Below, piece by piece: positions 1 to 22,956 of a stretch of 47,155 nt of DNA. The stretch is from NCBI GenBank assembly GCA_017528425.1, contig JAFXOV010000058.1, positions 1 to 47,155 on the forward strand. The letters run 5' to 3'. This stretch comes from Elusimicrobiota bacterium. Lineage in GTDB: Bacteria; Elusimicrobiota; Endomicrobiia; Endomicrobiales; Endomicrobiaceae. The notes under the pieces are model-generated. The model searched no databases, was not told the DNA's origin, and saw only the letters and a list, made by a program, of their open reading frames with translations. The stretch's first letter is position 1. The number at the start of each line of letters is the position of its first letter. Made by a program: the position numbers and the translations under genes.

Positions 1-968
1 AACATTACCATTGTTAAACTTTTACCGCTGCCTTGAGTATGCCATATAACACCATTTCTTGAACCGTTACCATCTTTACCTAAAATTCTATCCATGGCTT
101 TTTTTATACCGAAAAACTGTTGGTATCTTGCGATTTTTTTTACATTATTATCGTATAATGTAAACATTTTTATTATTTCAAACAATCTGTTTTTTTCTAA
201 CAGAGAAATAATATTTCTATCTTGTGTTGTCGGTATTCTGTTTTTTACATGAACATTTAATAAATAGTTTAACCAACTATCATCTTTTTCTTTCCATTGA
301 GTAAAATATTCTTTTGCGGTTGCACATGTTCCATATAAAAAATCGTTTGTATTTGTAGATATTTCAAGTTGCACAAATTTAAAGAGTTGTGGTATTTCGT
401 TTGGTTTACAGTTTTGAACTAACTGTTTTATTCCTTCATCAACCGTTATTGCAGACTTTTTACATTCTATTACTACTAAAGGAATACCGTTTACAGTTAT
501 TACAATATCCGGTCTTCTGTGAGTTTTATCAAACTTTTCTACAGAAAATTCGTCTGTAACTCTAAATATATTATTATCTATATTCTGCCAATCAATAAAT
601 TTTAAATCGAAAGATTGTGTTGTGCCGTCAAACAAAGTTTCTTGATAAGATTTCCCATAAAGTAACAAATCATATATTTTTTTTGAAGCACTCATTAAAC
701 CTTGCTCTAAAGACACATCTATATCTTGAATTGCTTTTGTTATATTATTATTTGAAAAATAGAATTCTTCGTTTTTATACTTAAATTTTTGTTTTTTTAA
801 AAATTCCAATAAATCGTTTTTTAAGATAACAGTTGAAAGTCGTTCTCTTTGTTTTTCAGCTTCTTTAGGTGTTAAATAAGAATAACCCAAACTAACTAAC
901 AAATCTATTGCAGGTTGTTGGCTTATCGGTCTTTCATTTAAAATTTTATGATCTAAATTTGTGTTCAT
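1..968 (-). CDS. hsdR: Type I restriction enzyme R subunit, N-terminal part (HsdR, cut by window edge)
   Basis: HsdR is the motor and nuclease subunit of type I restriction enzymes; it cleaves DNA that lacks the host methylation pattern. Only the first 322 residues are in the window; the gene continues past base 1. The N-terminal nuclease domain shows a PD-(D/E)xK arrangement: D154 in RRPD and E168/K170 in IECKK. The Walker A of the translocase follows at residues 310-317 (HTQGSGKS, K316). The start is the ATG at 968, preceded by a GAGG ribosome site 5 nt upstream. It is the last gene seen of the hsd operon and lies 22 bp behind a 51-codon gene. The sequence to the edge is open with no frameshift. 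Identity is secure from the motifs and from hsdM and hsdS in the same operon; completeness cannot be judged. Confidence 0.95.
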   Translation of the reverse strand, partial: MNTNLDHKILNERPISQQPAIDLLVSLGYSYLTPKEAEKQRERLSTVILKNDLLEFLKKQKFKYKNEEFYFSNNNITKAIQDIDVSLEQGLMSASKKIYDLLLYGKSYQETLFDGTTQSFDLKFIDWQNIDNNIFRVTDEFSVEKFDKTHRRPDIVITVNGIPLVVIECKKSAITVDEGIKQLVQNCKPNEIPQLFKFVQLEISTNTNDFLYGTCATAKEYFTQWKEKDDSWLNYLLNVHVKNRIPTTQDRNIISLLEKNRLFEIIKMFTLYDNNVKKIARYQQFFGIKKAMDRILGKDGNGSRNGVIWHTQGSGKSLTMVM

Positions 969-990: not shown

Positions 991-1146
991 TTATTTTGAC
1001 TTTTGGTTAGGTTTAGAAGAAACTGGTTTTGTACGAACAAAAGAACTTAAACTATTTGTAATAATATTCTCATCTTTTAGTGTTTCTATCTTTTCACTAG
1101 AATTTGATTTGTTGTTAACAGAGTTTTGATTTTTATTGTTTGACAT
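991..1146 (-). CDS. 51-residue small protein, paralogue of the next upstream small gene
   Basis: A short open frame of 51 residues with a strong ribosome site (AGGAGA, 7 nt before ATG), lying between another small gene and hsdR. The protein is hydrophilic, rich in Asn, Ser and Lys, with no membrane segment, and is probably disordered. Its C-terminal part (residues 32-47, NSLSSFVRTKPVSSKP) closely matches residues 31-45 of the neighbouring 48-residue protein (GSLSQFVKVKPVSKP), so the two are probably tandem paralogues. No family is recognised. The good SD sites, tight spacing and shared motif argue that it is expressed. Function is unknown; its place directly before hsdR suggests a role tied to the restriction complex, which is inference only. 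Confidence 0.65.
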   Translation of the reverse strand: MSNNKNQNSVNNKSNSSEKIETLKDENIITNSLSSFVRTKPVSSKPNQKSK

Positions 1147-1162
1147 AATTCAATCTCCTATT

Positions 1163-1309
1163 TTATTTTGTATTAGGTTTAGATACCGGCTTAACTTTAA
1201 CAAACTGACTTAAACTACCTGTTTTTTTCATTTGTTTAGGTTTTTGTGGTTTAGAATTTACAAATTGAAGCATACTATCTTGTCCTGTAGTGTACTTACT
1301 GTTTGGCAT
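1163..1309 (-). CDS. 48-residue small protein with an internally repeated SxxxFVxxKP motif
   Basis: A 48-residue open frame with a good ribosome site (GAGAGG, 7 nt before ATG). The protein is basic and hydrophilic. It contains two copies of one motif: residues 11-25 (DSMLQFVNSKPQKPK) and residues 31-45 (GSLSQFVKVKPVSKP). The second copy matches the C-terminus of the 51-residue protein encoded just downstream (16-bp gap). Such repetition in three places across two adjacent genes is unlikely to be chance. I know of no named family. It is most simply read as a linear binding motif presented twice by this protein and once by its neighbour, with the partner unknown. Confidence 0.65.
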   Translation of the reverse strand: MPNSKYTTGQDSMLQFVNSKPQKPKQMKKTGSLSQFVKVKPVSKPNTK

Positions 1310-1311
1310 AA

Positions 1312-1440
1312 TTAATCCTCTCTTTTATTATTTGTATCTTTTAGATTAGCATCTTTATATTGTAAACATTTCATATCTTTGTTTTCACATAAAATTGTTT
1401 CTTGAACTATTTCTTTATTTTTTTTGTTTACATTTTTCAT
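1312..1440 (-). CDS. Possible 42-residue small protein overlapping its upstream neighbour
   Basis: A 42-codon frame opens inside the last 26 bp of the upstream membrane-protein gene and closes 2 bp before the ATG of the 48-residue gene, whose ribosome site lies inside its last codons. This geometry suits translational coupling. The product is Lys/Asn-rich, has two Cys (residues 18 and 25) and no membrane segment. It shows no similarity to the two small proteins that follow. There is no clear SD of its own, so it could be a chance frame; the start could also be the internal ATG at codon 23. Confidence is low to moderate. Confidence 0.35.
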   Translation of the reverse strand: MKNVNKKNKEIVQETILCENKDMKCLQYKDANLKDTNNKRED

Positions 1441-1852
1441 TACAAAAATACATTCTGTAATTAAACATCGTTAAAGATAAAACAAATGTTAACAATATAG
1501 CTAATATAAAAAATACTTTAGAAATCTTATCTAAAAAATCTGCTAACTTTGTATCAACTGGTTTATCTTCTATTGAACTTTTCAATATATCATTATTAAC
1601 TTCAAAAATATATAAACAAATTATAATTGTAATTAAGAATAAAATAATTGAAAACAACCAAAGGAAAAATTGAGTTAAATTATTTATTCTAGAGAAAGAA
1701 AAAGTAATTAATAAACCAATTCCTGCACTGGATAAATATAATAATTGCTTATCTATTTCCATACAATTATTTGCCAATGCAGAATATGCTGCACTTAAAT
1801 AGCAATTTTGTTTTTCTTGTGCATCTGTTGTTTCTTCTTTTTTATCTTCCAT
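1415..1852 (-). CDS. Small three-helix membrane protein of the hsd operon
   Basis: A 145-residue protein with a short charged N-terminus rich in Glu and Lys and three predicted membrane segments at about residues 38-54, 62-84 and 113-132. A charged loop with several Asp and Lys lies between the second and third. The C-terminus is basic (KCKQKK). The start at 1852 has a GGGAG ribosome site and follows the hsdS stop by only 2 bp, so it is part of the operon. I do not recognise a family. Small membrane proteins are not core parts of type I restriction systems, so this is an accessory gene. A role in anchoring the complex or in a membrane-acting defence response is possible but unsupported beyond location. 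Confidence 0.75.
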   Translation of the reverse strand: MEDKKEETTDAQEKQNCYLSAAYSALANNCMEIDKQLLYLSSAGIGLLITFSFSRINNLTQFFLWLFSIILFLITIIICLYIFEVNNDILKSSIEDKPVDTKLADFLDKISKVFFILAILLTFVLSLTMFNYRMYFCNEKCKQKK

Positions 1853-1854
1853 AT

Positions 1855-2994
1855 TTATCTCCCTACTCTTATTTTACCTGTTAAAAGTTTTTGCATAAGA
1901 CCTTTTTTTTGTAATTCCAAATTTGAAAGTTTTTGTTTTAACAAATCTATTTGTTTATCGGCGGTTGATAAAACTTCTGCAATTGCTTTTTGCTCTGTTA
2001 AATTTTGTGGAATATAAATAATTATTTTTTTTATATCTTCACTCGATATATTTGGTTGAGCTCCACCATAAGACATTTTTAAAAATTTATTCTTAAAAGC
2101 AAAAAGATATTGATTAATAAAATTCTGATTAGATTTTAAAGCTCTAATTATACCTACTCTTTGATTCAATAATAATTTTTTATCAGAAGTATTTATAGCC
2201 AATTTTCCAGTAGTAGCACCAGACATAGCAATTAGTAAATCATATTGTTTTATAACAAACTGATTATATTTATAAATATAATCTATTGGTAAACAAACAT
2301 CTTCGTCACTTAAAACAATTTTACCATTAGAAATATTTGAGATTTTTATTAACAATATTCCTTTATCACAAAAATCATTACTTGAAAAAGAAAACCCAGA
2401 AATAAAATCACAAATATCACCTAAATTATATTTCTTCCACTTATCTTTAAAACCTTTCATGCGGATTTTACTTGTTAGAAGTTTTTGCATTAAATATTTT
2501 TTTTGTAATTGTTTTTGTTCAATTAATTTTTTTGTAGTTTCAATTGCCTTATCCCAAAGTTCCAATATCTCAACAATCTTTTCTTGTTCCTTTATCGGTG
2601 GAACTATACACTCAATATTCATTATTGTAGAAGCTGATAAACTTGGCACACCTGAAGCTTCATTGTATCTATACCAATTTATAGTATTAAATAAATAATA
2701 TAAGAATTTAGCAGAAAAACCTTTATTAACAATACTATAAAACAAAGTATCCACTGTCCAAAAAGGAGAATCCATATATCTTGGAATATCAATTGTCCCT
2801 TTTCTCCCTATCAAGACAGACGGTTTATTATAAATATACTTATTAGCAAATCCTATTATTCCACCTGAGCCCAATATTGGATATTTGCCATTCTTATCTT
2901 CAACTTCATGTTGTGATTTACCATGACAAATTGTTAAGCATTTTTTTATTTTTAACTTTTGCCAATCTTTTGGTATTTTATTTTTTTGTTTCAT
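1855..2994 (-). CDS. hsdS: Type I restriction-modification specificity subunit, two target-recognition domains
   Basis: HsdS reads the bipartite DNA target and joins the two HsdM and two HsdR copies. This 379-residue protein has the usual two-part layout: TRD1 (about 1-130), a central conserved helix ending near QKLLTSKIR, TRD2 (about 190-310) and a C-terminal helix ending QKLLTGKIR. The two helix ends are near-repeats, as expected for the dimer-like S subunit. I start it at the ATG at 2994 (MKQKNK), which overlaps the preceding SIR2-like gene by 17 bp; an upstream in-frame start at 3012 would add six residues. It is separated from hsdM by three accessory genes, which is unusual. A second, shorter S-like gene opens the operon at 8028, so recognition may involve two different S polypeptides. 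Confidence 0.93.
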   Translation of the reverse strand: MKQKNKIPKDWQKLKIKKCLTICHGKSQHEVEDKNGKYPILGSGGIIGFANKYIYNKPSVLIGRKGTIDIPRYMDSPFWTVDTLFYSIVNKGFSAKFLYYLFNTINWYRYNEASGVPSLSASTIMNIECIVPPIKEQEKIVEILELWDKAIETTKKLIEQKQLQKKYLMQKLLTSKIRMKGFKDKWKKYNLGDICDFISGFSFSSNDFCDKGILLIKISNISNGKIVLSDEDVCLPIDYIYKYNQFVIKQYDLLIAMSGATTGKLAINTSDKKLLLNQRVGIIRALKSNQNFINQYLFAFKNKFLKMSYGGAQPNISSEDIKKIIIYIPQNLTEQKAIAEVLSTADKQIDLLKQKLSNLELQKKGLMQKLLTGKIRVGR

Positions 2995-4021
2995 TAAAAT
3001 TATCCCATACATTAACTGTTTTATAATTATAAAAAGAAATTTTCTTTTTGTTTTTTAAATCATTGTTTTTAGAAATAAACTTTCTAACTTCTTCTTTTTC
3101 TATTTGTTCTTCCGATGAAACAGGAAAGAAAATTTCATTACATTTACTTTCCATTATAGCATCAACAATATGTTCATCATTATTGGAAAATTTTGTACCA
3201 AAAATAACTAATCCTGTTGTACTAGACATTTTTTTTAATCTTCTGAAACAAACATTTAGATATGAATTATGCATAATTTTTGATAGTTTTTGCTCACTGG
3301 TTCCTTCAGATATAAAAACAGGATAAATATTATTTTTTAGATTTTCTAAAGTTTGCTCTTTTAAAGGAATATCCGTTCTAGAAAAAGTATTCTTAATAAT
3401 TAAAGAACCTTTATCGAAAATATGCAATCCCCCATGTAGATATAATATATTTGGTTCTCCTAAAAATTCAACATATTCATCTTCTTTGTTACCATTTGCA
3501 AAACCATCACTTACATCAATACTATTTTCAATAGTTCCTTTTCCTACTAGTTCTAAATATTTCATAGTTACCCAATATAACAATAAATCATAATTTAAAG
3601 TATAAATTCTAGTGTAATCTTTTATAAAATTAATTGCAGATCTGTACTTATGTTCAGTAATATCTGTAGGTAAATTAGGATGATTATTTGTTACAACATC
3701 AACTAAATATTTTTTTAAACTTTTAGAATCTTCTCTAATTTCTTTTATTTCCTTGTAATTATATGCTGATAATATATTGTTAGTATTTTCTAAAGATTTT
3801 ATAACCATTTCAAAATCTGATGTACTAAATATTTGAAAAGCCTTATGCAATGCACTACCTTTTTCTATTATTTCTTTTTCCAATGCACTATTCAATAAAC
3901 TTGTATAGGAAAATCTGTTGCTATCATAAGCCATACTGAAACCATTTCCTAAAAGTAACACTTTATTTTTATAATCTTTTATTTGTTCTAAAACTTCTAA
4001 ATAATTTAGTATTTTTGTCAT
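2978..4021 (-). CDS. SIR2-like protein (DUF4917-type), predicted NAD-binding defence effector
   Basis: A 347-residue soluble protein with the hallmarks of the SIR2-like fold as used in phage defence: a nucleotide-binding LLLGNG loop (GNG at residues 25-27), TLNYD at 141-145 (Asn143), LHGGLH at 195-200 (His196), and a C-terminal IFGTKFSNND segment resembling the G-[YT]-x-F-x-x-D element of these proteins. Asn and His in these positions are the usual NAD-hydrolysing pair. The overall pattern fits DUF4917. It lies 4 bp behind a membrane-protein gene and overlaps hsdS, so it is co-expressed with the restriction system. By analogy with SIR2-domain defence proteins, it may deplete NAD when triggered; that is inference. 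No transporter, signal peptide or extra domain is visible. Confidence 0.72.
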   Translation of the reverse strand: MTKILNYLEVLEQIKDYKNKVLLLGNGFSMAYDSNRFSYTSLLNSALEKEIIEKGSALHKAFQIFSTSDFEMVIKSLENTNNILSAYNYKEIKEIREDSKSLKKYLVDVVTNNHPNLPTDITEHKYRSAINFIKDYTRIYTLNYDLLLYWVTMKYLELVGKGTIENSIDVSDGFANGNKEDEYVEFLGEPNILYLHGGLHIFDKGSLIIKNTFSRTDIPLKEQTLENLKNNIYPVFISEGTSEQKLSKIMHNSYLNVCFRRLKKMSSTTGLVIFGTKFSNNDEHIVDAIMESKCNEIFFPVSSEEQIEKEEVRKFISKNNDLKNKKKISFYNYKTVNVWDNFNETKK

Positions 4022-4025
4022 TTTA

Positions 4026-4808
4026 TTAATTCCTTGGATAAGAAAAAATATGTATTCCTATCTGTTGATCTATCGGAATATCTTTATGTTTTATCTGAAA
4101 TAGTATTTCTTCAATTTTCTCTTTAAATTCATTTATTCCTTTTTCAAAATTACTTAAATAATATCCATATTCTTCTAACAATTTATTTTCATCTTCAACT
4201 GAATACTTTTTCCAATTCTTTGATTTAGTTAAAATTCTATCCATTTCTTTTGCTAATGCTAAACGAATTTTTGAAATATTATCAAATTCAACAAATATCA
4301 AATTATTTCTTTGAATTTCATTTAAATTGTTTGGCATAGGCATTGATAACAAGCACCAAAAATATTGTATATATTTAGCTATATTATATTTTTGAAAGAT
4401 TATCATATTTGAATTAACATAGGCATTTAAACTATTAATTTCGTTCCAATAATCTAAAAACTTTGCATTTGCTCCACCATTTTGATATGTCAAATTGTTA
4501 TGATTCTTTTCATTAGTAGGTTCTTTAAATGGGTTTGCTAAATCATGAGTAAACCAAAACAATACTTTTTCAGCAGACATAAATTTTTTATAAAATTCTA
4601 ATAAAACTTTAATTTCATAACAATAAATTTCTTCTTTTAACCAATTATTTTTTTGTATATTATTTTGTTCTTTTAATAAGTCATTTGCTTTTTTATTTTC
4701 TCTAAATATAAGATATGTTACAACACAATATACAAAAGTAATAATAACAATACTGATTCCACTATTATTATTAAAAAATTTAATTACTTCTGTAATATTA
4801 AAACTCAT
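4026..4808 (-). CDS. Membrane-anchored protein of unknown family, partner of the SIR2-like gene
   Basis: A 260-residue protein with one membrane segment at about residues 16-36, followed at once by a Lys/Asn-rich linker and a mostly helical cytoplasmic part rich in aromatic and charged residues. A coiled-coil-like stretch (about 40-75) follows the membrane helix and another helical, Glu/Lys-rich stretch lies near 205-245. I recognise no family. It is encoded 4 bp before the SIR2-like gene, which suggests the two products act together, perhaps with this one as a membrane tether or sensor. It is not a standard type I restriction gene. The start at 4808 has an AGGAG site but with long (12-nt) spacing. 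Confidence 0.7.
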   Translation of the reverse strand: MSFNITEVIKFFNNNSGISIVIITFVYCVVTYLIFRENKKANDLLKEQNNIQKNNWLKEEIYCYEIKVLLEFYKKFMSAEKVLFWFTHDLANPFKEPTNEKNHNNLTYQNGGANAKFLDYWNEINSLNAYVNSNMIIFQKYNIAKYIQYFWCLLSMPMPNNLNEIQRNNLIFVEFDNISKIRLALAKEMDRILTKSKNWKKYSVEDENKLLEEYGYYLSNFEKGINEFKEKIEEILFQIKHKDIPIDQQIGIHIFSYPRN

Positions 4809-4828
4809 TTTGTTTTATAATCTCCTAT

Positions 4829-5836
4829 CTATTTCTTCAACTTCTTTTGTTTGTTTTCAAGTTTTTTGATAACTTTATCAAAGTCGGACACTATTTTTTG
4901 AGTTCTATTGAATTTATCGTATTCTATTGTCGCTTTTCTATCCGCTTGTTTTTTTGAAACTTTTCCGTTATCTTTTAAAATGTCATATTTTCTGAAAGTT
5001 AAAAATTCATTAACACTTTTAGCAAATTCTTCCATAGAAAAAGCATTCTCTCTTTCAATTAAATCTTCAATATAATCAAAGTAACCTGTAACTGCCCTTT
5101 CAAGCCGTTTAATTTCTTTTTCCTGTAAATAGTTTTTAGCAATAGTAACATCGGATTTTAATATTCTTCCGTCCGGAGAATGTTTCCATGTAGTTAAGCC
5201 CATATTTTGCTTTTTACTATCGGCACTATCATTAATGATTTCTGCTGCAGTTTTGCCTGTAATAGCATAGTGAAATTTATTTTGTATTGTTGCATAAAAT
5301 TCTTGTGTTATTGGAGAGTTTTTATCGTAATCCCAACTACATTCGGCAAAAATATCGGTAATTTGTTGCCAAATTCTTCTTTCGGAAGCCCTTATTGAAC
5401 GAACTCTTTCCAATAATTCTCTAAAATAATCTTTACCGAAAGTTGTTGTTCCTTGTTTTAATCTTTCATCATTAAGAACAAATCCTTTTTGTATATACTC
5501 TTTCAATATTTTTGTAGCCCAAATACGAAATTGTGTTGCTTTTGAAGAGTTTACTCTGTAACCTACGGAAATAATAGCATCAAGATTGTAAAACTTTGTA
5601 ATATAATTTTTCCCATCACTGGCAGTTGCCGAGAATTTCTCGGTAACTGACTTTTCATCAAGTTCGCCTTCTTTAAAAATATTTTTTAAATGAAGGGATA
5701 TATTATCAGAACTACAGCCAAACAATTCCGCCATAGATTTTTGTGTAAGCCAAAGATTTTCATCTTTAACTACAGCTTCTATAGAAACCTTTTCGTCCGG
5801 TGTTGTATATAATAAAAAAGATATTTCGTTAATCAT
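4829..5836 (-). CDS. rhuM: RhuM-family protein
   Basis: A 335-residue protein of the RhuM family, named after a gene of a Salmonella pathogenicity island and often found inside type I restriction operons. The N-terminal part (about 15-60) contains the phrase WLTQKSMAELFGCSSDNIS, which reads as a helix-turn-helix-like segment. The middle contains FYNLDAIISVGYRVNS, a hallmark of the family, and a Lys-rich coiled-coil tail ends the protein. The molecular role of RhuM in restriction operons is not established; DNA binding is the usual guess. The start at 5836 has an AAGGAG site 5 nt upstream and lies 9 bp behind hsdM. Length is normal for the family. Confidence 0.85.
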   Translation of the reverse strand: MINEISFLLYTTPDEKVSIEAVVKDENLWLTQKSMAELFGCSSDNISLHLKNIFKEGELDEKSVTEKFSATASDGKNYITKFYNLDAIISVGYRVNSSKATQFRIWATKILKEYIQKGFVLNDERLKQGTTTFGKDYFRELLERVRSIRASERRIWQQITDIFAECSWDYDKNSPITQEFYATIQNKFHYAITGKTAAEIINDSADSKKQNMGLTTWKHSPDGRILKSDVTIAKNYLQEKEIKRLERAVTGYFDYIEDLIERENAFSMEEFAKSVNEFLTFRKYDILKDNGKVSKKQADRKATIEYDKFNRTQKIVSDFDKVIKKLENKQKKLKK

Positions 5837-5845
5837 ATTTTCTCC

Positions 5846-7405
5846 TTATAAGCCCAATTCTTTTAAATATTTTTTCATTTGTTCGTCAACATCTTTTAAC
5901 TGCTTTTCTATATCATTAATTTCTTTTTTTACCGCTTTAATATCAACTTCTTTTTCTTCTTCAAAAGTATCTACATATCTTGGAATATTCAAATTGTATT
6001 CATTATCTTTTATTTCTGTTATACTTGCCACATGAGCAAATTTTTCAATATCTTTTCTGTTTTTATATGCAGAATATATTTCCGATATGTTTTCTTCTAA
6101 TAATACATTTTGTTTTTTTTCTTTTTTATAATGAGTTTCGCCGGAAGCATCTATAAATAATATATCTTTGTTTTTCCTGTTCTTTTTAAATATTAAAAGT
6201 GCCGCAGGAATACTTGTTCCAAAAAATAAATTTGAAGGTAAACCGATAACAGCATCTAACAAATTATTATCTATAACTTTTTTACGGATTTGCCCTTCAC
6301 TTGCTCCCCTAAATAAAACTCCGTGTGGAGCTACTGCAACTATTGTTCCGTTATTATTTAAACTTGCTATCATGTGAAGTAAAAAAGCCCAATCTCCTTT
6401 TGTTTTAGGTGGAACACCATAAGAAAATCTGTTGAATCTGTCTAAACTTGCTTCCATTTGAAAACTTTTCTTTTTATCTTTATCTGAAGATTCTTCTTCA
6501 CCGCCTGGATTGAAACCTTCTGCCCATTTATCTAAAGAAAATGGCATATTTGCAACTATAACATCAAATTTCATTAAATTACCGTCATCATCTAAATGTT
6601 GTGGATTTGATAATGTATCACCGAGAGCAATTTTGGCATCGCTTATATCATGAATAAACATGTTCATTTTTGACATAGCCCAACTTGAAGCATCTCTTTC
6701 TTGTCCGTATATAGCAACATTTTTTACACCTGCTTTTTTCGCCGTTCTAATTATAAGTGAAGAAGATCCTGCTGTCGGATCATAGACGGACTGCCCCGCT
6801 TTAGGGTTAGCAATTCGTGCCATTAATTCCGCAACACCCATAGGAGTAAAGAAACTGCCGGCTTTTGCCCCTGCTTGTTGTGCAAATTGTCCTATCATAT
6901 ATTCGAAAGCATCACCTAAAACATCACTTGGAACTTGACCTTCTTTAACTTCTATTTGAGAAGGTCTTAAATCTAAAGAATTAAAATCTTCTAACAAATT
7001 TTTTAGAGTAGTTATCTTATCTTTTTGTTCACCTAAATTTGCAGTGCTGTTAAAATCTACACTTCTAAAAATACCCTGTAAATATTGTTGGTTATCGTCT
7101 TCTATTCCTCTTAATGCTTCATTTATTTTTTCACCTATAGTAGATAAATTTTTTTGAGCATATAAAGATTTAAACGAAAACTTTTCTTGTAATTTAAAAG
7201 GTAGTCTTTCTTTTGCTCTTTCAAATCTTTCTTTGTTAGGATACTTTTTCTTTAATTCTTCTATATTTTCTTCATAAATATCACTTAAATATTTAACAAA
7301 AAGTAATGGTAATAAATAATCTTTATAAGTTGATGCCCCTATAATTCCCCTAAAAGTATTTGCTCCGTTCCATAAAACTTGTTCTATATCTGTTCTTGTG
7401 GTCAT
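5846..7405 (-). CDS. hsdM: Type I restriction-modification DNA adenine methyltransferase subunit
   Basis: HsdM transfers a methyl group from S-adenosylmethionine to adenine N6 within the target set by HsdS. The 519-residue protein has the N-terminal helical HsdM domain (about 1-140), the SAM-binding motif I DPTAGSSS at 209-216 and the catalytic motif at 286-289, read here as NMPF rather than the commoner NPPF. The C-terminal tail is coiled-coil-like and Lys/Glu-rich, as expected for contact with HsdS. Its ATG shares one base with the stop of the upstream S-like gene (TAATG), which implies coupled translation. The NMPF variant keeps the Asn and Phe that act on the base, so activity is likely. 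Identity is secure. Confidence 0.95.
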   Translation of the reverse strand: MTTRTDIEQVLWNGANTFRGIIGASTYKDYLLPLLFVKYLSDIYEENIEELKKKYPNKERFERAKERLPFKLQEKFSFKSLYAQKNLSTIGEKINEALRGIEDDNQQYLQGIFRSVDFNSTANLGEQKDKITTLKNLLEDFNSLDLRPSQIEVKEGQVPSDVLGDAFEYMIGQFAQQAGAKAGSFFTPMGVAELMARIANPKAGQSVYDPTAGSSSLIIRTAKKAGVKNVAIYGQERDASSWAMSKMNMFIHDISDAKIALGDTLSNPQHLDDDGNLMKFDVIVANMPFSLDKWAEGFNPGGEEESSDKDKKKSFQMEASLDRFNRFSYGVPPKTKGDWAFLLHMIASLNNNGTIVAVAPHGVLFRGASEGQIRKKVIDNNLLDAVIGLPSNLFFGTSIPAALLIFKKNRKNKDILFIDASGETHYKKEKKQNVLLEENISEIYSAYKNRKDIEKFAHVASITEIKDNEYNLNIPRYVDTFEEEKEVDIKAVKKEINDIEKQLKDVDEQMKKYLKELGL

Positions 7406-8028
7406 TATTTTTCTCCTATTAAATTTTGTAAGAAACTTTTATAAAATTCTTCTTTTTTTTCTATTAAATTCTTATATAATTTTATTTCTTTGTTTAATAA
7501 TTTATAAAACTCTACTATTTCTTTTTGCTTTTCCAAATTTATTACCGGTATATCTATATCGCTAATAGTAGATTGTTTTATTGAATTAACTAACCAAGTA
7601 TCTTCTTTTTTGTATTGTTGCATCTTCTTTGTATTTGAAAATGTATTTAAGAAAATGCTTACATATTCATTAATAACCGGTTCCGATAATATATTACTAC
7701 TTTTATTATTTCGCAATTTTACAAATTGCGAAGGAACTACAATATTTTCTAAATCTTTTGTAACAACGAAAGATTTTAACGGATTTATTAACCTTACAAT
7801 AATATCGTTTTCTTTTGTCAGATATTTTTCATCCATTATATTTTCCGTATAAATTTCATTAAAGAAATCTGTACTTATTGTATTATCTTCTAAAAAAGAT
7901 TTTAAACTTAATACTTTATATTTGCTATAATTAATATTGTTTGATTGTTCAGTAAAATCTACCGCTTTTCTTGAAACTACTAATCCTATTTGAACATCAA
8001 ATAATTCCGAAAGTTTTATATTTTTCAT
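7405..8028 (-). CDS. Single-TRD HsdS-like specificity protein
   Basis: A 207-residue protein with one target-recognition-like domain (about 1-165) and one C-terminal helix (about 168-205, Glu/Lys-rich, ending SFLQNLIGEK), which is half of a normal HsdS. The start is chosen at the ATG at 8028, preceded by AAGGAAA at good spacing; a TTG-initiated frame begins at 8061 but lacks a site. It is the first gene of the operon, 41 nt from the predicted start of transcription, and is coupled to hsdM by a TAATG overlap. Half-S proteins can pair to make a full recognition unit, or compete with the full HsdS. It may therefore give the enzyme a second specificity. It could also be a relic, but the frame is intact. 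Confidence 0.78.
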   Translation of the reverse strand: MKNIKLSELFDVQIGLVVSRKAVDFTEQSNNINYSKYKVLSLKSFLEDNTISTDFFNEIYTENIMDEKYLTKENDIIVRLINPLKSFVVTKDLENIVVPSQFVKLRNNKSSNILSEPVINEYVSIFLNTFSNTKKMQQYKKEDTWLVNSIKQSTISDIDIPVINLEKQKEIVEFYKLLNKEIKLYKNLIEKKEEFYKSFLQNLIGEK

Positions 8029-8075
8029 ATATATTTTCCTTAAAACAATTGTTATTTTCAACTTTTAACAAGATT

Positions 8076-12426: not shown

Positions 12427-13482
12427 CTATTTTGAACACTCTAACAAAGTATATTCGAAAGGTCCGATATTTTCATGTATTTTCGATAACCTTAACCCCG
12501 ACTTATTTATACAGTCCAACATTTCGTTACAGGAATACATTTTGCTGTTACCGTTTGCCAATGCCGTAAAATATAAAGATATATGTGTTAACGATAACTT
12601 TGCCGCTTCAAATTTCTGTTTATCCCAAAACGGTTCCAATATAAAAACTTTTGTTCCGCTAAGCATAACATTTTTTACTTTTTTAAGTATAGACACAATT
12701 TCTTCCAAAGAGAAACAATCCAAAAATTGGCTCATAAGTACAACATCCGGATTGTTCGGTAACCCTAAAGAAGCATCCAAAATATTTGTAGGGAAAAATT
12801 CGCAATTTTCAACTTTATTAAGTTTTTCCATGTTCTGCTTGGCCATGTTCAACTGTTTTTGTAAATCTATCATTACCATTGTGCCCGTATATCCGTTTTT
12901 AAACATTGCAGTTTCGAATTTTCCCGTATTGCAACCTATATCAAAAACCCGTTTCGGGTTTGATTCCAAAATTATTTTTATAACCTGTTCGAAAGAGTTG
13001 TCCGAATAGAAGTGATCGAAATCGAACCAACTTTTTTTAACATCTTCCGGTAAAGAAGAAAGACCTTCATATATTGTTTTCCAATTGCCGAAACATTTTA
13101 ATCCTTCCGGTTTTGAATTTACAAACGAATCTTTCAAATAAAACATACCCTGATAACATACATCGTTAACAAAATTAAAGTTAACTTTTGTCATGGTATC
13201 ATACAAGAAACATTGACCGATTTTTGTTATGTTATACTTGTTATCTTTAAGTTCAACAACATCCGAAAATGTACCCACTTCAAGTAATGTGGAAACGGTA
13301 TAATGGTTCAAGTTCAACTTTTTTTCTATATCTTCAACGGATATTCCGTCAGGCAAACTTTCATCTATCAATTTTAATATACCTAAATCCGCCATAGATT
13401 TTATTGCCTGAAAACTGAACGGAGCAAATGCTATTTTTTGTGCCAACGATTTTGCTTCAACCATTTTCATTTTTTTATCCAT
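12427..13482 (-). CDS. SAM-dependent methyltransferase of the aryl-polyene-type cluster
   Basis: A 351-residue protein with an N-terminal winged-helix-like dimerisation part (about 10-100) and a class I methyltransferase fold. The SAM-binding loop FDIGCNTGKF is near residue 178, the acidic end of strand 2 (MVMIDL) near 200, and VVLMSQFLDCF near 245. This resembles O-methyltransferases of secondary metabolism. Aryl-polyene clusters usually carry a methyltransferase that decorates the aryl head group, which is the likely job here; the substrate is inferred from context. The ATG at 13482 has a strong AGGAG site and lies 3 bp behind the ketosynthase-ligase gene. Confidence 0.8.
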   Translation of the reverse strand: MDKKMKMVEAKSLAQKIAFAPFSFQAIKSMADLGILKLIDESLPDGISVEDIEKKLNLNHYTVSTLLEVGTFSDVVELKDNKYNITKIGQCFLYDTMTKVNFNFVNDVCYQGMFYLKDSFVNSKPEGLKCFGNWKTIYEGLSSLPEDVKKSWFDFDHFYSDNSFEQVIKIILESNPKRVFDIGCNTGKFETAMFKNGYTGTMVMIDLQKQLNMAKQNMEKLNKVENCEFFPTNILDASLGLPNNPDVVLMSQFLDCFSLEEIVSILKKVKNVMLSGTKVFILEPFWDKQKFEAAKLSLTHISLYFTALANGNSKMYSCNEMLDCINKSGLRLSKIHENIGPFEYTLLECSK

Positions 13483-13485
13483 ATA

Positions 13486-15288
13486 TCACTCCTGCCAATC
13501 TTTCATTTTTCCGAACTGCGTTTTCGGAAGTTCTGTTCCCAACGTTATTTTTTTCGGTGTTTCGTGTGCAGTTAAACTTTGTTTCATGTACACTTTTAAA
13601 TTTTTCATAAACTGTTCTTTATCTGTATTGCTGTCTTTCAAAACTATAAATGCTTTTAAGAAGTTTCCTTCTTCCGGCTTGGATAATCTTACTGCCGCTT
13701 CTTTAACATTTTCAAACTTGCACAATATATCTTTAACTTTGTTGGGATACACATTTATTCCTGCAACCTGAACGGCATTATCTTTTCTGCTTACCGGTTT
13801 GAACCTGTTATCTTCGAACAGTTCAACGTTGTCCGGCAACTCTATTTCCATATCACTGTTTTTTCTTTTAATCGAAACCATTGTATTGTTATTAAGTTTC
13901 GGTTCCCAACACGGTAACAGTTTAAAACCTTCGGAAGACTTGTTTCTGTACCCGATAGCACCGGCTTCGGATGCTCCGTAAATTTCTGTTAATGTGTTAA
14001 CCCCGTTATCGTAAAGGCCGTCCATAGTTTCTTTCGGGCATGGTGCCGTAGATGTAAGTACTGTTACTTTTTTAGTGAACTTATATTCCAACTTTACCAA
14101 CTGATTTAAAAACATAGGGAACGTTACAAACAAATCGTTATCCTGCAAAACATTGTTCCAGTCCGTTGTAGGTATAGGCGGCATTTTTATAAGTTCAACA
14201 TTTAATCTTTTTGAAAGTTGTAACCCGAAAATAAACCCGTAAGAATGGAACGACGGGACCAAACAAACTATTCTTTTAATATCTTTAAATAACGGTAACA
14301 CCGCACTTACTTCTTCTTTTATGTTATCCTGCGAATGTTTACATTGTTTGGATATTCCCGTAGAACCGGAAGTTAAAAAGTTTATAAATTTGTTCTTCTT
14401 GAACAAGTTAAATATTTCGTCCACAATAAAATTTTTGTTTACGGTTACCGTTTCTTTGGAAAATATCGATGATAAAGTTTTTAATATCTCTTGTTGCGTG
14501 GTATCATCAACATCAGTAAAGATATTTGAAATACCGTCATTTTCAAAAACGTTTAAAACATTTTTGTACTTTTTGGACAGTTCCGTTTTAATAAAATCGC
14601 AACAGATGGTTTCTATATCCTGTTTATCCAAAATAAGTGAATACTTTTTGGACAGTTCCATTGCCAAGCAGGACGGATAAAATTTATTATCTGCTTTGTT
14701 TTCCAAATTAACATCTATATTGTTATCGGATTTTTCCAGCAGAAAAAATGCACTGCCGAACCCAACATTTTTGTTGCTAAAATCTTTAAACACTTCAACA
14801 TTATTTTCAATTATACTTTGTGCAACGGTATGGATTTCGTCTACCGCACCTACCAAAACTTTGTCTGCCGTACCGCACGACAACCAAGTTTGCGCTATCG
14901 CCAACGCACTTTGAAAAGATGAATCCAAGTTACTGACCGTAAGTGACGGACCTTTTATGTTTAACAAAATGGATATTGTTGTTAATGCACTGTTATGAAC
15001 GGAAGATGAAAAAGCGTTCGGACTTGCACATTCGTCACCGAAATCTATAATAGAGTCCATAAAGTCGCAAGTCTTTTTTACGGGTCCGTACCCTGTAGCA
15101 ACAATCAGTCCTATATTTTTATTTTCTTCCAACCTTATATCCGCAATTTTTAAACAGTTAACTGCGGATTTGAGTGCAAGTTTGGAAAAAAAGTCCATTC
15201 TTCTGATTTTTTTCAGTTCGAAATCTTTTTCCAAGCCTGCAATGTTGTCCGTATTATATGTTGAAATTACAGATACATTTTTAAGCAT
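13486..15288 (-). CDS. Fusion of a Cys-less ketosynthase-like domain with an AMP-dependent acyl ligase
   Basis: A 600-residue two-domain protein. Residues 1 to about 230 are a ketosynthase-like domain in which the active-site Cys position holds Asp (NLDSSFQ, D122), so it cannot condense and probably acts as a chain-length-factor-like partner, as ApeC does for ApeO. Residues about 235-600 are an adenylating ligase: TSGSTG at 306-311, EIYGASEAGAIG near 415, and a C-terminal PKTQFGK with the catalytic Lys594. This half would activate the aryl starter acid, the ApeH role. The ATG at 15288 has an AGGTG site and overlaps the upstream ketosynthase stop by 8 bp; a GTG at 15297 is an alternative. The fusion of these two functions is not the standard layout. 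Confidence 0.82.
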   Translation of the reverse strand: MLKNVSVISTYNTDNIAGLEKDFELKKIRRMDFFSKLALKSAVNCLKIADIRLEENKNIGLIVATGYGPVKKTCDFMDSIIDFGDECASPNAFSSSVHNSALTTISILLNIKGPSLTVSNLDSSFQSALAIAQTWLSCGTADKVLVGAVDEIHTVAQSIIENNVEVFKDFSNKNVGFGSAFFLLEKSDNNIDVNLENKADNKFYPSCLAMELSKKYSLILDKQDIETICCDFIKTELSKKYKNVLNVFENDGISNIFTDVDDTTQQEILKTLSSIFSKETVTVNKNFIVDEIFNLFKKNKFINFLTSGSTGISKQCKHSQDNIKEEVSAVLPLFKDIKRIVCLVPSFHSYGFIFGLQLSKRLNVELIKMPPIPTTDWNNVLQDNDLFVTFPMFLNQLVKLEYKFTKKVTVLTSTAPCPKETMDGLYDNGVNTLTEIYGASEAGAIGYRNKSSEGFKLLPCWEPKLNNNTMVSIKRKNSDMEIELPDNVELFEDNRFKPVSRKDNAVQVAGINVYPNKVKDILCKFENVKEAAVRLSKPEEGNFLKAFIVLKDSNTDKEQFMKNLKVYMKQSLTAHETPKKITLGTELPKTQFGKMKDWQE

Positions 15289-16462
15289 TTTTATCACCTA
15301 AAATAATAACACTGTTAACACCGCCGAAAGCAAGCGAGTCGGATAATGCAACATGTTTTTCAGTTTTAGTATTTTCAAGTACCGGCACAAAATTTATTTC
15401 TTCATCAAACTCTTTAAAGTTTGAAGCTTTCGGAATTTCTTTTTTGTTTAATGCAATTAAACTCAGTACCGCTTCTATTGCTCCCGCAGCACCCAACGTG
15501 TGACCGGTATGACTTTTAGATGCCATTACCGGAACATCTTTTAACAGTTCGTTAAACACTTTAGATTCGGTTAAATCGTTATCATGTGTTCCCGTACCGT
15601 GCGCATTTATAAATGCTATATCTTCCTTTTTTATACCGGCATCTTTCATTGCATGCATTACGGCATTTTTTAAACCGATACCGTCAGGTGCGGGTGTTGT
15701 GGGATGGTACCCGTCGCAACAGTTACCGTACCCCAAAACATAACCTGCCGGTTCCATATTTCTTTGTTTAAAAATTTCTTCTTTTTCCAAAACAAGTATT
15801 CCGCAACCTTCACCGATATTTATTCCGCCTCTGTTTTTGGAAAACGGACTGCACGGATTTTTACCTGCTATTAACAACTTTATAAAACCGGTATACGGAA
15901 TAATGTTAAGTTCGTCCGTACCGCCGCAAATTACAATATCGCACAAGTCTTGTTGTATCCATTGGCCTGCGATACCTATTGCATCGGTGGAAGATGCGCA
16001 TGCCGTTGTTATTGTGGCATGAAGGCCTGAAATTGATAAATATTTTTGTAATCTTTCACTGAGCGAATAACTGAAATAATCCACTAAATCCCAATATGAT
16101 GATACTTCATTTTTTTTGTATTGTTTATAAAAATCAAAACAGTTGAAAGAGGCATTTACGGATGTTCCTAATATGATACCTACTCTGTACTTTTGTAAAT
16201 CCTGTTTTGACAGTTTGGCTTGTTGTAATGCTTGTTCCACACAAGTTCTTACAAACAAAAAGCCGTAAGATTCGTCTTCTTTTTTTTGTGATAAAAGTTT
16301 TTCCGGTACAAGATAAACGGGATAATCGTTTTTATATGAACTTTCGAATCTGGTTGTAATATGTGTCGGTACACTTACTTTATTATAAATATTGTCGGAT
16401 ATTTCTTCCAATGTTGTGCCCAAACTGCACACACAAGACATTGAACTTATTATCGTTTTCAT
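15281..16462 (-). CDS. Beta-ketoacyl-ACP synthase (ApeO-like)
   Basis: A 393-residue condensing enzyme of the FabF type with a complete catalytic set: Cys155 (TTACASS), His288 (AHGTGT) and His321 (SHTGH), and a closing FGGVN. It would extend the polyene chain by decarboxylative condensation on the ACP. Its gene lies between the ACP and the Cys-less ketosynthase fusion, so it probably pairs with that protein in the way ApeO pairs with ApeC. The ATG overlaps the ACP stop (TAATG), implying coupled translation. Length is normal. Confidence 0.88.
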   Translation of the reverse strand: MKTIISSMSCVCSLGTTLEEISDNIYNKVSVPTHITTRFESSYKNDYPVYLVPEKLLSQKKEDESYGFLFVRTCVEQALQQAKLSKQDLQKYRVGIILGTSVNASFNCFDFYKQYKKNEVSSYWDLVDYFSYSLSERLQKYLSISGLHATITTACASSTDAIGIAGQWIQQDLCDIVICGGTDELNIIPYTGFIKLLIAGKNPCSPFSKNRGGINIGEGCGILVLEKEEIFKQRNMEPAGYVLGYGNCCDGYHPTTPAPDGIGLKNAVMHAMKDAGIKKEDIAFINAHGTGTHDNDLTESKVFNELLKDVPVMASKSHTGHTLGAAGAIEAVLSLIALNKKEIPKASNFKEFDEEINFVPVLENTKTEKHVALSDSLAFGGVNSVIILGDKNA

Positions 16463-16719
16463 TATTTTTTTCTGTTTTCTTCAATATGTTTTCTTAAAGT
16501 TTCAAATGTTTGAAAAACTTCTTTGCCTTGTTTCATATCTTCAATTGAAATATCGTAATTCTTTTTTAAAACCACAATAAGTTCTATGGCATCCAAACTG
16601 TCTAATCCTAATCCTTCAAAAAGAGGAGTGTCACCTGTAGTGCTGTCGATATCTATTCCTTCCAATTCTAAGTTTTGTTTCAATACTTTTTTTACATCTT
16701 CAAGTGAAGTTGGAATCAT
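16462..16719 (-). CDS. Acyl carrier protein (second ACP of the cluster)
   Basis: An 85-residue acyl carrier protein with the phosphopantetheine attachment Ser41 in GLGLDSLDAIEL. It carries the growing acyl chain for the ketosynthase encoded directly after it. It opens the second half of the cluster after a 149-bp gap. The start at 16719 has a GGAGAA site 9-10 nt upstream. Two different ACPs are typical for aryl-polyene clusters (ApeE and ApeF). Confidence 0.88.
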   Translation of the reverse strand: MIPTSLEDVKKVLKQNLELEGIDIDSTTGDTPLFEGLGLDSLDAIELIVVLKKNYDISIEDMKQGKEVFQTFETLRKHIEENRKK

Positions 16720-16868
16720 TGATATTATTCTCCTGTTTATTGTATGTTTCTTTAACCTAAATTATACAAAATTATAACTTGTTTTTTGTTGTCATTCCGA
16801 ACTTGATTCAGAATCTATAAAAAAATAAAAATTCCTGTTTGCTTCCAATCTTCTAATCTTCCAATCTT
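16720..16868. other. Gap inside the polyene cluster with palindromic and tandem repeats
   Basis: This 149-bp gap separates the acyltransferase from the second ACP. It holds copy 2 of the 32-nt palindromic repeat (16790-16821) and most of a tandem TTCYAATC array (16843-16874). On the minus strand two TATAAT-like boxes (16766-16761 and 16776-16771) lie before the ACP, so a second promoter is possible, but neither has a convincing -35. Confidence 0.5.
16790..16821 (-). repeat. Palindromic 32-nt repeat, copy 2
   Basis: Reads on the minus strand as the same 32-nt element found at 10220-10251, 29 of 32 bases identical. Stem positions 14 and 22 change from G-C to A-T together and position 12 changes to a tolerated T-G pair, so the hairpin is preserved. 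It sits between the two halves of the polyene cluster, where it could slow or end transcription. Confidence 0.75.
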
Positions 16869-16874
16869 CTAATC
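16843..16874 (+). repeat. Four tandem copies of TTCYAATC
   Basis: TTCCAATC and TTCTAATC alternate, four units of eight bases, over the stop codon of the acyltransferase gene. Units of eight bases can slip during replication and would shift the reading frame past the present stop, but only the last two residues of the protein lie inside the array. Confidence 0.7.
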
Positions 16875-17780
16875 TTCTGTCTTTTTGTCGTTCCCTTCCC
16901 ACATATCATACATATTAAAAAATTGGTACGGGTACTGTTTAGTAAACTGTTCCAATGCATTAACAAACTTTTCGGCATACTCTTTATAATTTGTTATTTT
17001 TGCACCGTTATCTTCAACAACAAAATTATCTAAAATCATTGAATCAAATTTTCCGTTACTTTTTGTAGGAAAAAACACTATAACTATCGGCGTTTGTGTA
17101 ATGGAAGCAATTCTGTATATTGTTCCCGGAACATTTATACTGTGTCCCAAAAAGTTTACCGATATTTCGTTCTTTTGTGAACCGAATGTTCTGTCACCCA
17201 TAACACAAACTATGGATTTTTTTTGCAGTACGGACAACATTTCCACGGTTCCGCCGTAAGGGCCTGTAGGATCTATAAACTTTATATTTTGTTTTCTGTT
17301 ACCATGCTCGTAAACTTGTTTATCCACATCTTCTTTAACCCGTTTATATAAAACATATTTGTCTGCTTTTATAAAATCAAATGCCGCCATTGCACTTTGC
17401 CAGGCACCGCAATGCGCCGTTATAAATATAAGGCCTTTTCCTTGGTTGTATAAGTCGGTACACAAATCTCTGTCTTGTTGCGATGACAAAATTTCTATTT
17501 TACCTAAAATACCGAACACCGCTTTATCCACCAACGTTTTACCGAACGATAAAAACAGTTTATAACAATGCCAAAATTTTGAAAAAAAGTTCGGTCTTCC
17601 AAACCGTTTTTCTATGTAGGGATATGCTTTTCTTCTGAATTTCGGAACTATCGCATAAGAAGCAACAACAAAATACAGTAACAAATAAGCACAGTACCTG
17701 CCGCCTGTTTTTATTAAGAAATAAAATATTTTATGTTTGAAAGAAGAAGCAACACTTGCTCCCGTCCAATTATCTGCCAC
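16869..17780 (-). CDS. Lysophospholipid/lauroyl-type acyltransferase
   Basis: A 303-residue membrane-associated acyltransferase of the HtrB/LpxL-like superfamily. An N-terminal hydrophobic segment (about 30-48) is followed by the catalytic region: TAHCGAW at 121-127 (His123, the usual HxGxW form) and MGDR near 195. These enzymes move acyl chains onto lipid acceptors at the inner membrane. In aryl-polyene clusters an acyltransferase of this type is thought to help place the polyene on its lipid anchor. The start is a GTG at 17780 with an AGGAGAGG site; it overlaps the upstream glycosyltransferase by 11 bp. The stop lies inside a tandem repeat. Confidence 0.82.
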   Translation of the reverse strand: MADNWTGASVASSFKHKIFYFLIKTGGRYCAYLLLYFVVASYAIVPKFRRKAYPYIEKRFGRPNFFSKFWHCYKLFLSFGKTLVDKAVFGILGKIEILSSQQDRDLCTDLYNQGKGLIFITAHCGAWQSAMAAFDFIKADKYVLYKRVKEDVDKQVYEHGNRKQNIKFIDPTGPYGGTVEMLSVLQKKSIVCVMGDRTFGSQKNEISVNFLGHSINVPGTIYRIASITQTPIVIVFFPTKSNGKFDSMILDNFVVEDNGAKITNYKEYAEKFVNALEQFTKQYPYQFFNMYDMWEGNDKKTED

Positions 17781-18924
17781 TTAAAATTAAACCTCTCCTG
17801 ACAATTTTACCTATAAAAAAAACTATTATTCCCACCAACACCGCAAATACAGGTGCTACCACAAGCGACCCCAATATCCATTCCCAAATTCGTTGCGGTG
17901 CCTGATATCCCAAAGTAGTTAAATTAAATTCAGTTAACCATTTCCCGTGTCTGATAAAAAACCCGACTTCTATTGCTATTGCAGGAACAAACGGCGGCAT
18001 AGCAAGTTTATCCAAACTTAAACATATTGCTCTGTTCAAATTGAAGTATCCCATACCGAATAACAATATCATTGTTCTTATTCCCGGTAAAGCGATACTT
18101 CCCCAAAACACTGCCCACACTGTACTTACGGCAAGATTGTACGGACTTTTGTTTTTTTTAAGTTCCGCTTTTACAACTTTAAACGGATTCAACGATACAA
18201 CCTGATTATCTTTGTTAACTATATATTTTTTGTGCGGGTATGGTATCATTGCTCTTACGGTTAACTTGGTATTTAAAATCGATAACCTTAAATTATCCTG
18301 GAACTTTTTAAAATGGCTGACTCTTTCCCTGCCTTTATGGTACTTTACTTTTACATCGGCTTCTTTTACATCAAAACCCGCCCATATTGACTTTATAATA
18401 ACTTCAACTTCGAAAGAGTACCTTTTATCGTGAAACTTTAAATAATCGAATATTATTAACGGATAAACTCTTAACCCGCTTTGAATATCACCGACTTTTT
18501 TACCTGTTTGAACTCTTGCCCAAAAACCGGAAAATTCTCTGCCGAACTTTGACGAGCCGGGCACGTTTTCCGTATTAAAATTTCTGTAACCTATAACTAT
18601 CGACTTATCGTTTTGTTCGGCAATTTCGCTTAACTTAAAAAGGTCTTCGGCATAATGTTGGTTGTCGGCATCTATAGTTAAAAGGTGTGTAAAACCGTTT
18701 TCTTTGGCATATTTTGCTGCTGTTAAAATGGCTTGTCCTTTACCTTGATTTTTTTCGTGAGTGATACAGTTTACATTTAAGTCGGATATAACTTGTTTTG
18801 AATTGTCTGTACTGCCGTCATCAACAACCAAAATATCAACAAAATATTTTTTTACATCTTCTATTACCGTCGGTAAAGTTTTTGAATGGTTATATAAGGG
18901 AACTGCGACCAAGGGTTTATACAT
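17770..18924 (-). CDS. Family 2 glycosyltransferase fused to a DUF2062 membrane domain
   Basis: A 384-residue protein. Residues 1 to about 220 are a GT-A glycosyltransferase of family 2 with VVDDGSTD (Asp35, Asp36) and a DAD metal-binding motif near residue 86. Residues about 260-384 are the DUF2062 domain with three or so membrane helices. This GT2-DUF2062 pairing is common in lipid-sugar loci and matches the ApeJ-like glycosyltransferase role in polyene clusters, probably adding a sugar to the head or the lipid anchor. I choose the ATG at 18924 (MYKPLVAVPLYNH), which fits the family start; an ATG at 18951 would add nine residues. It overlaps or abuts both neighbours. Confidence 0.85.
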   Translation of the reverse strand: MYKPLVAVPLYNHSKTLPTVIEDVKKYFVDILVVDDGSTDNSKQVISDLNVNCITHEKNQGKGQAILTAAKYAKENGFTHLLTIDADNQHYAEDLFKLSEIAEQNDKSIVIGYRNFNTENVPGSSKFGREFSGFWARVQTGKKVGDIQSGLRVYPLIIFDYLKFHDKRYSFEVEVIIKSIWAGFDVKEADVKVKYHKGRERVSHFKKFQDNLRLSILNTKLTVRAMIPYPHKKYIVNKDNQVVSLNPFKVVKAELKKNKSPYNLAVSTVWAVFWGSIALPGIRTMILLFGMGYFNLNRAICLSLDKLAMPPFVPAIAIEVGFFIRHGKWLTEFNLTTLGYQAPQRIWEWILGSLVVAPVFAVLVGIIVFFIGKIVRRGLILSGR

Positions 18925-18926
18925 AT

Positions 18927-19391
18927 TTATTTTATTAATCCTTGTTGCCATTTCTTACAGAATTCTTCGTAAAATTTCGGCTTTACCAAAACAAGATTTT
19001 TGTCTTTATCCGTCATCATTTGAATTGTGTATGCTCTTGTGGCCAACTTGTTATCGCTTGAATATATTTCGTACTCAAAATCAAGACGCGGTGCTTCATT
19101 CCAATGAAGTATGGCTTTTACGGTGTACTCTTTATTAAATTCCAACGGTGCAATATAATCAATAAAAAATCTTTTTATCGGTATAATAACACCACTGTCG
19201 GCAAATTCAGTGTAACCGATACCGTATTTTATACCCATTGCAACTCTGGCATCTTCAAAAAAACTTGCATAGTTACCGTGCCACATAACATTTAACGGAT
19301 CAAGTTCATCGAAACGAACTTTTCTTTTAACTTCGCAGGTTAACGGTTTGGGATCACCGGTTTTTGTTTTAAAAAATTCTTTTGTCAGCAT
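18927..19391 (-). CDS. 4-hydroxybenzoyl-CoA-type thioesterase
   Basis: A 154-residue hot-dog thioesterase. The signature region reads DELDPLNVMWHGNYASFFED with Asp31 and His38, the D-x(6)-H-x-x-Y pattern of the 4HBT family. Aryl-polyene clusters carry one such enzyme (ApeK) that is thought to release or proofread acyl chains on the ACP. The gene sits 3 bp behind the small dehydratase gene and ends next to the glycosyltransferase. Length is normal for the family. Confidence 0.85.
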   Translation of the reverse strand: MLTKEFFKTKTGDPKPLTCEVKRKVRFDELDPLNVMWHGNYASFFEDARVAMGIKYGIGYTEFADSGVIIPIKRFFIDYIAPLEFNKEYTVKAILHWNEAPRLDFEYEIYSSDNKLATRAYTIQMMTDKDKNLVLVKPKFYEEFCKKWQQGLIK

Positions 19392-19394
19392 AAT

Positions 19395-22954: not shown

Positions 22955-22956
22955 TT

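What the first reader, a model, noticed from the sequence alone, without database searches (positions are those of the whole stretch)
991..1309. Tandem micro-proteins with a repeated SxxxFVxxKP motif before hsdR
Two adjacent genes of 48 and 51 codons, both with strong ribosome sites, share one motif three times: DSMLQFVNSKPQKPK and GSLSQFVKVKPVSKP in one, NSLSSFVRTKPVSSKP in the other. Such short genes are usually missed. Repetition suggests a linear binding motif with a common partner, perhaps HsdR or another operon product.
Basis: partly seen in the sequence, partly recalled or inferred. Interest (0 to 1): 0.65.

Follow-up and report, generated by a model that had tools for sequence, protein, structure and literature searches.

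The report
Membrane protein with tandem motif micro-proteins
Inside a bacterial DNA-restriction operon lies a swapped-in mini-operon: a small three-helix membrane protein followed by tiny, repetitive, disordered proteins, found again beside other phage-defence genes in distant relatives, so it is probably an undescribed defence add-on in which the tiny proteins control the membrane protein.

Summary
In detail: two minus-strand genes (48 and 51 codons) with good Shine-Dalgarno sites carry S[LM]xxFVxxKP three times; composition shuffles essentially never reproduce this. The closest relatives of this hsdR (97-99% identical) lack both micro-genes. Instead the motif travels with the gene just upstream, a 145-aa protein with three hydrophobic segments. 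Two homologues of that protein, elsewhere in Elusimicrobiota, sit in loci without hsdR and carry the same kind of motif (SLEGINRIKP, SLGEVYAIKP, SLEGVKKIMP, SLNGLNKMSP, SLNGMEALRP), as a separate 48-aa gene or as an in-frame tail with its own internal ribosome site. A fourth, weaker case has three tiny downstream genes. The two clear homologues lie beside R-M, Pbe and Gabija genes, and the window copy fills the hsdS-hsdR slot known to host defence cargo (e.g. DarTG2). Best reading: a portable membrane effector with antitoxin-like disordered regulators, analogous in layout to SpoIISA/SpoIISB/SpoIISC but not homologous to it. Function is inferred, not shown.

The parts
991..1146 (-). 51-aa micro-protein, one motif SLSSFVRTKP (1024-1053)
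   Evidence: ORF; SD AGGAGATTGAATT, -7.3 kcal/mol; gene-like codons; motif statistics
1163..1309 (-). 48-aa micro-protein, two motifs SMLQFVNSKP (1247-1276) and SLSQFVKVKP (1187-1216)
   Evidence: ORF; SD GAGAGGATTAATT, -7.8 kcal/mol; gene-like codons
1312..1440 (-). 42-aa small ORF overlapping the end of the membrane gene; no SD, no motif; perhaps translationally coupled, status uncertain
   Evidence: motif P=0.21; codon usage z 2.7
1415..1852 (-). 145-aa membrane protein, three hydrophobic segments; proposed effector
   Evidence: ORF, SD -8.9, hydrophobicity, homologues 37% and 33% identical, E 2.6e-15 and 1.7e-13
1855..3012 (-). hsdS (385 aa), upstream border of the slot; the ORF opens at 3012 but no SD is seen there
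   Evidence: Methylase_S 3.3e-45; junctions
3..968 (-). hsdR, N-terminal part, runs off the window; downstream border of the slot
   Evidence: HSDR_N 4.5e-42
2978..5836 (-). Other cargo of the same R-M operon: DUF4917/PDC-S21 (2978-4021), 260-aa protein (4026-4808), RhuM/PDC-S05 (4829-5836)
5846..8061 (-). hsdM (5846-7405) and a 218-aa half-length hsdS-like ORF (7405-8061)
   Evidence: PADLOC Specificity_I 2.8e-10 for the latter; hsdM named from its translation, not run against a library

Best explanation
The finding is the distal half of a small portable module inserted between hsdS and hsdR: a 145-aa protein with three membrane segments, followed by short, basic, probably disordered proteins bearing one or two copies of a 10-residue motif (S-L-x-x-hydrophobic-x-x-x-x-P, here S[LM]xxFVxxKP). 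Most likely the membrane protein is an effector that damages or depolarises the membrane of infected cells, and the micro-proteins bind it through the motif and hold it in check, as disordered antitoxins do; a phage that disturbs host synthesis or the R-M complex would release it. Shown here: module, motif, its conservation together with the membrane protein, and its siting beside defence genes. Inferred: membrane damage, binding, restraint and trigger.
For: (1) Two homologues of the membrane protein carry motif copies: G064 has an in-frame tail SLEGVKKIMP plus a separate 48-aa gene with SLGEVYAIKP and SLEGINRIKP; G156 has an in-frame tail with SLNGLNKMSP and SLNGMEALRP. Scored only with the three window motifs, these tails beat all 5,000 shuffles (P=0.0002). 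(2) Both tails have an internal ATG with a strong SD (-6.3, -8.8), so free peptide can be made. (3) hsdR relatives of 97-99% identity lack the module: one has Abi_2 there, one nothing. (4) Neighbours: PbeC/PbeA and Gabija in G156; EcoRI-type methylase and a DUF262-HNH restriction enzyme in G064. (5) The slot before hsdR in other loci holds DUF4917, RhuM, SIR2_2 and AAA_15 genes. (6) Peptides are hydrophilic (GRAVY -1.1, -1.3; net +9, +5). (7) SpoIISA (three TM segments) is held by two similar small antitoxins of 56 and 45 aa (PMC6562991).
Against: No toxicity, binding or phage data. In G064 and G156 one motif tail is fused in frame to the membrane protein, odd for a toxin-antitoxin pair unless the internal start gives the main product. 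If the N-terminus is cytoplasmic, a fused tail would be exported. Only three clear cases among 341 genomes. No close homologue of the micro-proteins, so no dN/dS between orthologues. The AlphaFold model is too poor to show how the tail packs (pLDDT 53.8).
Confidence: 0.4

Rival explanations
1. The micro-proteins are obligate small subunits or activators of the membrane protein (assembly partners of a channel or sensor), with several motif copies for avidity, rather than inhibitors.
For: In-frame fusion of motif tails to the membrane protein in G064 and G156 fits a positive partner better than an antitoxin; 2-3 copies per locus.
Against: Separate genes with strong ribosome sites in the window suggest the peptide is wanted in excess, as for an inhibitor.
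Confidence: 0.27
2. R-M guardian: the micro-proteins tether the membrane effector to the type I enzyme (HsdS/HsdM/HsdR), as PrrC is held by EcoprrI, and anti-restriction releases it.
For: Cargo position inside a type I locus, between hsdS and hsdR as for DarTG2 (PMC12707154; PMC12255303).
Against: The homologous modules sit beside other systems (Gabija/Pbe, EcoRI-like) with no hsdR seen near; hsdR genes 97-99% identical occur without them.
Confidence: 0.13
3. Secreted or leaderless bacteriocin peptides with a membrane immunity protein.
For: Tandem small basic peptides next to a small membrane protein.
Against: Peptides are strongly hydrophilic with no hydrophobic stretch (best 19-residue mean hydropathy below 0); no exporter gene noticed in the operon; defence neighbourhoods.
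Confidence: 0.04
4. The micro-ORFs are real but selfish or decaying cargo with no maintained function, the motif kept by recent duplication.
For: Patchy distribution; the 48- and 51-aa repeats still share runs of DNA.
Against: Same motif in distant relatives; the two most similar repeats differ by 5 synonymous and 4 non-synonymous codons, against roughly 1:3 expected without constraint; gene-like codon usage and SD sites.
Confidence: 0.1

Closest known systems
SpoIISA/SpoIISB/SpoIISC toxin-antitoxin system of Bacillus subtilis
   Same: Membrane protein with three TM segments and two small antitoxins (56 and 45 aa) similar to each other, SpoIISB natively disordered (PMC6562991).
   Different: No ~160-aa cytoplasmic GAF domain; no sequence match to it among PDB chains; motif tails may be fused to the membrane protein; defence neighbourhood.
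PrrC / DarTG2 cargo embedded in type I R-M loci
   Same: Cargo inside a type I R-M locus; DarTG2 sits between hsdS and hsdR as here.
   Different: No ATPase, nuclease or ADP-ribosyltransferase domain found; a small membrane protein with micro-proteins.
PycTM (Pycsar) and CBASS 2TM effectors
   Same: Small TM effector proteins; weak PADLOC similarity of single homologues (E 0.01-0.13).
   Different: Too weak to count; no cyclase gene recognised in the loci scanned; peptide partners instead.

Membership tests
SpoIISABC-type toxin-antitoxin | Three N-terminal TM segments | tested here: met
   Three hydrophobic segments by hydropathy and three long helices in a low-confidence model
SpoIISABC-type toxin-antitoxin | Cytoplasmic C-terminal GAF-like domain (~160 aa) | tested here: not met
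   Protein is 145 aa and ends shortly after the third segment; no SpoIISA hit in PDB search
SpoIISABC-type toxin-antitoxin | Small peptides neutralise a membrane toxin | not testable with these tools
   Needs expression experiments
PrrC-type R-M guardian | Gene embedded in a type I R-M operon | tested here: met
   Between hsdS and hsdR
PrrC-type R-M guardian | ABC-ATPase plus anticodon nuclease domain | tested here: not met
   No Pfam, NCBIfam or PADLOC domain of this kind in the module
PrrC-type R-M guardian | Silenced by the R-M enzyme, released by anti-restriction | not testable with these tools
   Needs biochemistry and phage tests
Pycsar / CBASS TM effector | Match to PycTM or 2TM effector profiles | tested here: inconclusive
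   Window protein none; homologues E 0.01-0.13
Pycsar / CBASS TM effector | Nucleotide cyclase gene next to the effector | tested here: not met
   None recognised among the neighbours scanned in the window, G064 and G156
Leaderless bacteriocin | Hydrophobic or amphipathic membrane-active peptide | tested here: not met
   GRAVY -1.1 and -1.3, no hydrophobic stretch

The most novel reading that the evidence does not exclude
An undescribed, portable anti-phage module in which a three-helix membrane effector is controlled by tandem motif-bearing micro-proteins (or by an internally initiated tail of its own gene), docking next to type I R-M, EcoRI-type R-M, Pbe and Gabija systems.
Probability: 0.4. 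Interest if true: 0.72.

Novelty: new variant of a known kind. Interest (0 to 1): 0.52.

Why it matters
Genes of 23-55 codons are easily missed by annotation and none of the family libraries used here covers these, so a defence module whose regulators are this small could go unseen even where its membrane partner is annotated. If confirmed it would give a new membrane effector with its regulators for the hsdS-hsdR cargo slot, and a short motif by which others could be found. The test is simple: express the 145-aa protein with and without the 48/51-aa proteins.

Tried and rejected
Direct searches with the 48-, 51- and 145-aa proteins: nothing for the 48-aa protein in viral contigs and plasmids, the 51-aa protein in genome contigs, or the 145-aa protein in plasmids and viral contigs. 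The three-protein alignment A1 found nothing in viral contigs and in genome contigs only the two loci already found through the genome search. Scans with the G133, L070 and L071 proteins in viral contigs: nothing. Weak hits of the 48-aa protein in relatives: those inspected are chance matches in unrelated genes or frames. The 18-residue motif profile across the phylum: the only new hit below E 0.01 lies in a ParB-like linker (NSLEQINKIKP, L107), so a single motif is not diagnostic. The G155 hit (L055, E 5e-5) contains a stop inside and showed no peptide: not used. The Vibrio plasmid homologue (E 8e-4) has no motif downstream. Pfam, NCBIfam and PADLOC have no family for the module. AlphaFold on the G156 fusion with a 3-row alignment: pLDDT 53.8, so no fold search was made. 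Internal promoter scan: 7 sites against 7.6 by chance. Centring genome searches on another phylum was not possible.

Full report
What is there. On the minus strand the window holds a type I restriction-modification operon: half-length hsdS-like ORF (7405-8061), hsdM (5846-7405), RhuM (4829-5836), a 260-aa protein (4026-4808), DUF4917/PDC-S21 (2978-4021), hsdS (1855-3012), then four small genes and hsdR (968 down to the window edge). The genome is an Elusimicrobiota member: its relatives found in the named collection are an Endomicrobiales and an Elusimicrobiales MAG, and the Endomicrobiales one counts as same order, which places the window in class Endomicrobiia.

Both ORFs have strong Shine-Dalgarno sequences (-7.8 and -7.3 kcal/mol; 6% of all minus-strand ATGs reach -6) and gene-like codon use only in their own frame. 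S[LM]..FV..KP occurs three times, against a mean of 0.00006 in 200,000 composition shuffles, and nowhere else in ORFs of 20 aa or more in the window. The 42-aa ORF has no SD and no motif but its codon use is gene-like; I leave its status open.

The module is an insertion. hsdR genes 97% (G005) and 99% (G013, over 200 aa) identical to this one follow hsdS with, respectively, an Abi_2 gene or nothing in between. In the window the end of hsdS abuts the SD of the 145-aa gene and hsdR starts 22 nt after the 51-aa gene, so the block of about 890 bp is a clean cargo. In other loci of the phylum the gene just before hsdR is DUF4917 (L022), RhuM (L026), AAA_15 (L030), DUF1828 (L037), SIR2_2 (L039) or DUF4276 (L046). 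Published work names the site between hsdS and hsdR a potential hotspot for defence systems (DarTG2; PMC12255303), and PrrC is embedded in a type I locus (PMC12707154).

The motif travels with the membrane protein. A search of 341 genomes of the phylum with the 145-aa protein gave two convincing homologues: G064 (37%, E 2.6e-15) and G156 (33%, E 1.7e-13). In G064 the membrane ORF continues in frame into a tail with SLEGVKKIMP and is followed by a 48-aa gene, SD -7.3, with SLGEVYAIKP and SLEGINRIKP. In G156 the membrane ORF ends in a tail with SLNGLNKMSP and SLNGMEALRP. In both the tail is preceded by an internal SD and ATG (-6.3, -8.8). To avoid a motif loosened after the fact, I scored the tails with BLOSUM62 against the three window 10-mers only: none of 5,000 shuffles reached the joint score (P=0.0002). 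A looser pattern S[LM]..[FILMV]....P occurs five times in these tails against 0.011 expected, but that pattern was chosen after seeing them. Within each locus the copies resemble each other more (SLSxFV, SLEG, SLNG), as if repeats are homogenised.

A fourth, weaker case: a profile of the three membrane proteins found a 159-aa protein in G133 (E 1.7e-5 for one genome, 341 searched), followed by three tiny ORFs of 37, 23 and 33 aa ending in lysine/proline-rich tails. Similarity of those to the window motif is only suggestive (P=0.06). A Vibrio plasmid protein (E 8e-4) resembles the membrane part but has no motif peptide.

Neighbourhoods. G156: the module lies between PbeC/PbeA (with a radical SAM gene) and Gabija gajA/gajB, all on one strand. 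G064: near an EcoRI-type methylase, a DUF262-HNH type II restriction enzyme, a DUF6161-like membrane protein, and HNH and T5orf172 genes. G133: an element with LexA-like and recombinase-like genes, judged from the translations only. No hsdR was seen in the stretches read around G064 and G156 (16 and 18 kb), which argues against HsdR as the obligate partner.

How it probably works (inference). The membrane proteins have three hydrophobic segments, the first rich in small residues. The micro-proteins are basic, hydrophilic and probably disordered, and the motif looks like a short capped helix (Ser, then hydrophobic residues at positions 2, 5 and often 8, Pro at 10). The simplest reading is a membrane-active effector restrained by small binding partners; SpoIISA with SpoIISB and SpoIISC has that layout (PMC6562991). 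It is not a member of that family: no GAF domain and no sequence match. The in-frame tails are the chief difficulty; they fit an activating subunit as well, which I keep as the main rival. PycTM/2TM similarity was seen only at E 0.01-0.13 for single members and no cyclase was recognised nearby.

Limits. No orthologues close enough for dN/dS; within the window the two most similar repeats differ by 5 synonymous and 4 non-synonymous codons, which hints at constraint only weakly. Other phyla could not be searched with a profile. The structure model was too poor to use. The paper searches made here turned up no description of such a module, but the library holds open-licence papers only.

Noticed in passing
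window 7405-8061 and 1855-3012: Two hsdS-like genes in one operon, one half-length (218 aa) and one full-length (385 aa).
   Followed up: no
window 12427-27678, L102 8431-11809, L052 2777-3019: Ketosynthase/ligase/ACP genes (aryl-polyene-like cluster, judged from translations) lie near the window operon and right beside the G133 module, and an acyl carrier protein gene lies near the G064 module; possibly a shared insertion neighbourhood.
   Followed up: no
L107 1342-2280: A ParB-like protein of G175 carries NSLEQINKIKPQK in its linker, a single match to the motif profile (E 3.7e-4).
   Followed up: partly
L068 7941-8375: A Vibrio parahaemolyticus plasmid in an array of small cassette-like genes encodes a 144-aa homologue of the membrane protein without a motif peptide.
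   Followed up: partly
window 35850-37103 and 37149-38402: Two tandem, similar 417-aa ATP-grasp-like genes.
   Followed up: no
window 4026-4808: 260-aa protein with an N-terminal hydrophobic stretch and no significant Pfam, NCBIfam or PADLOC match, inside the R-M operon between RhuM and DUF4917.
   Followed up: no
L066 9031-10898: A radical SAM gene and a 153-aa gene of no family sit between PbeC and the membrane module in G156, on the same strand.
   Followed up: no
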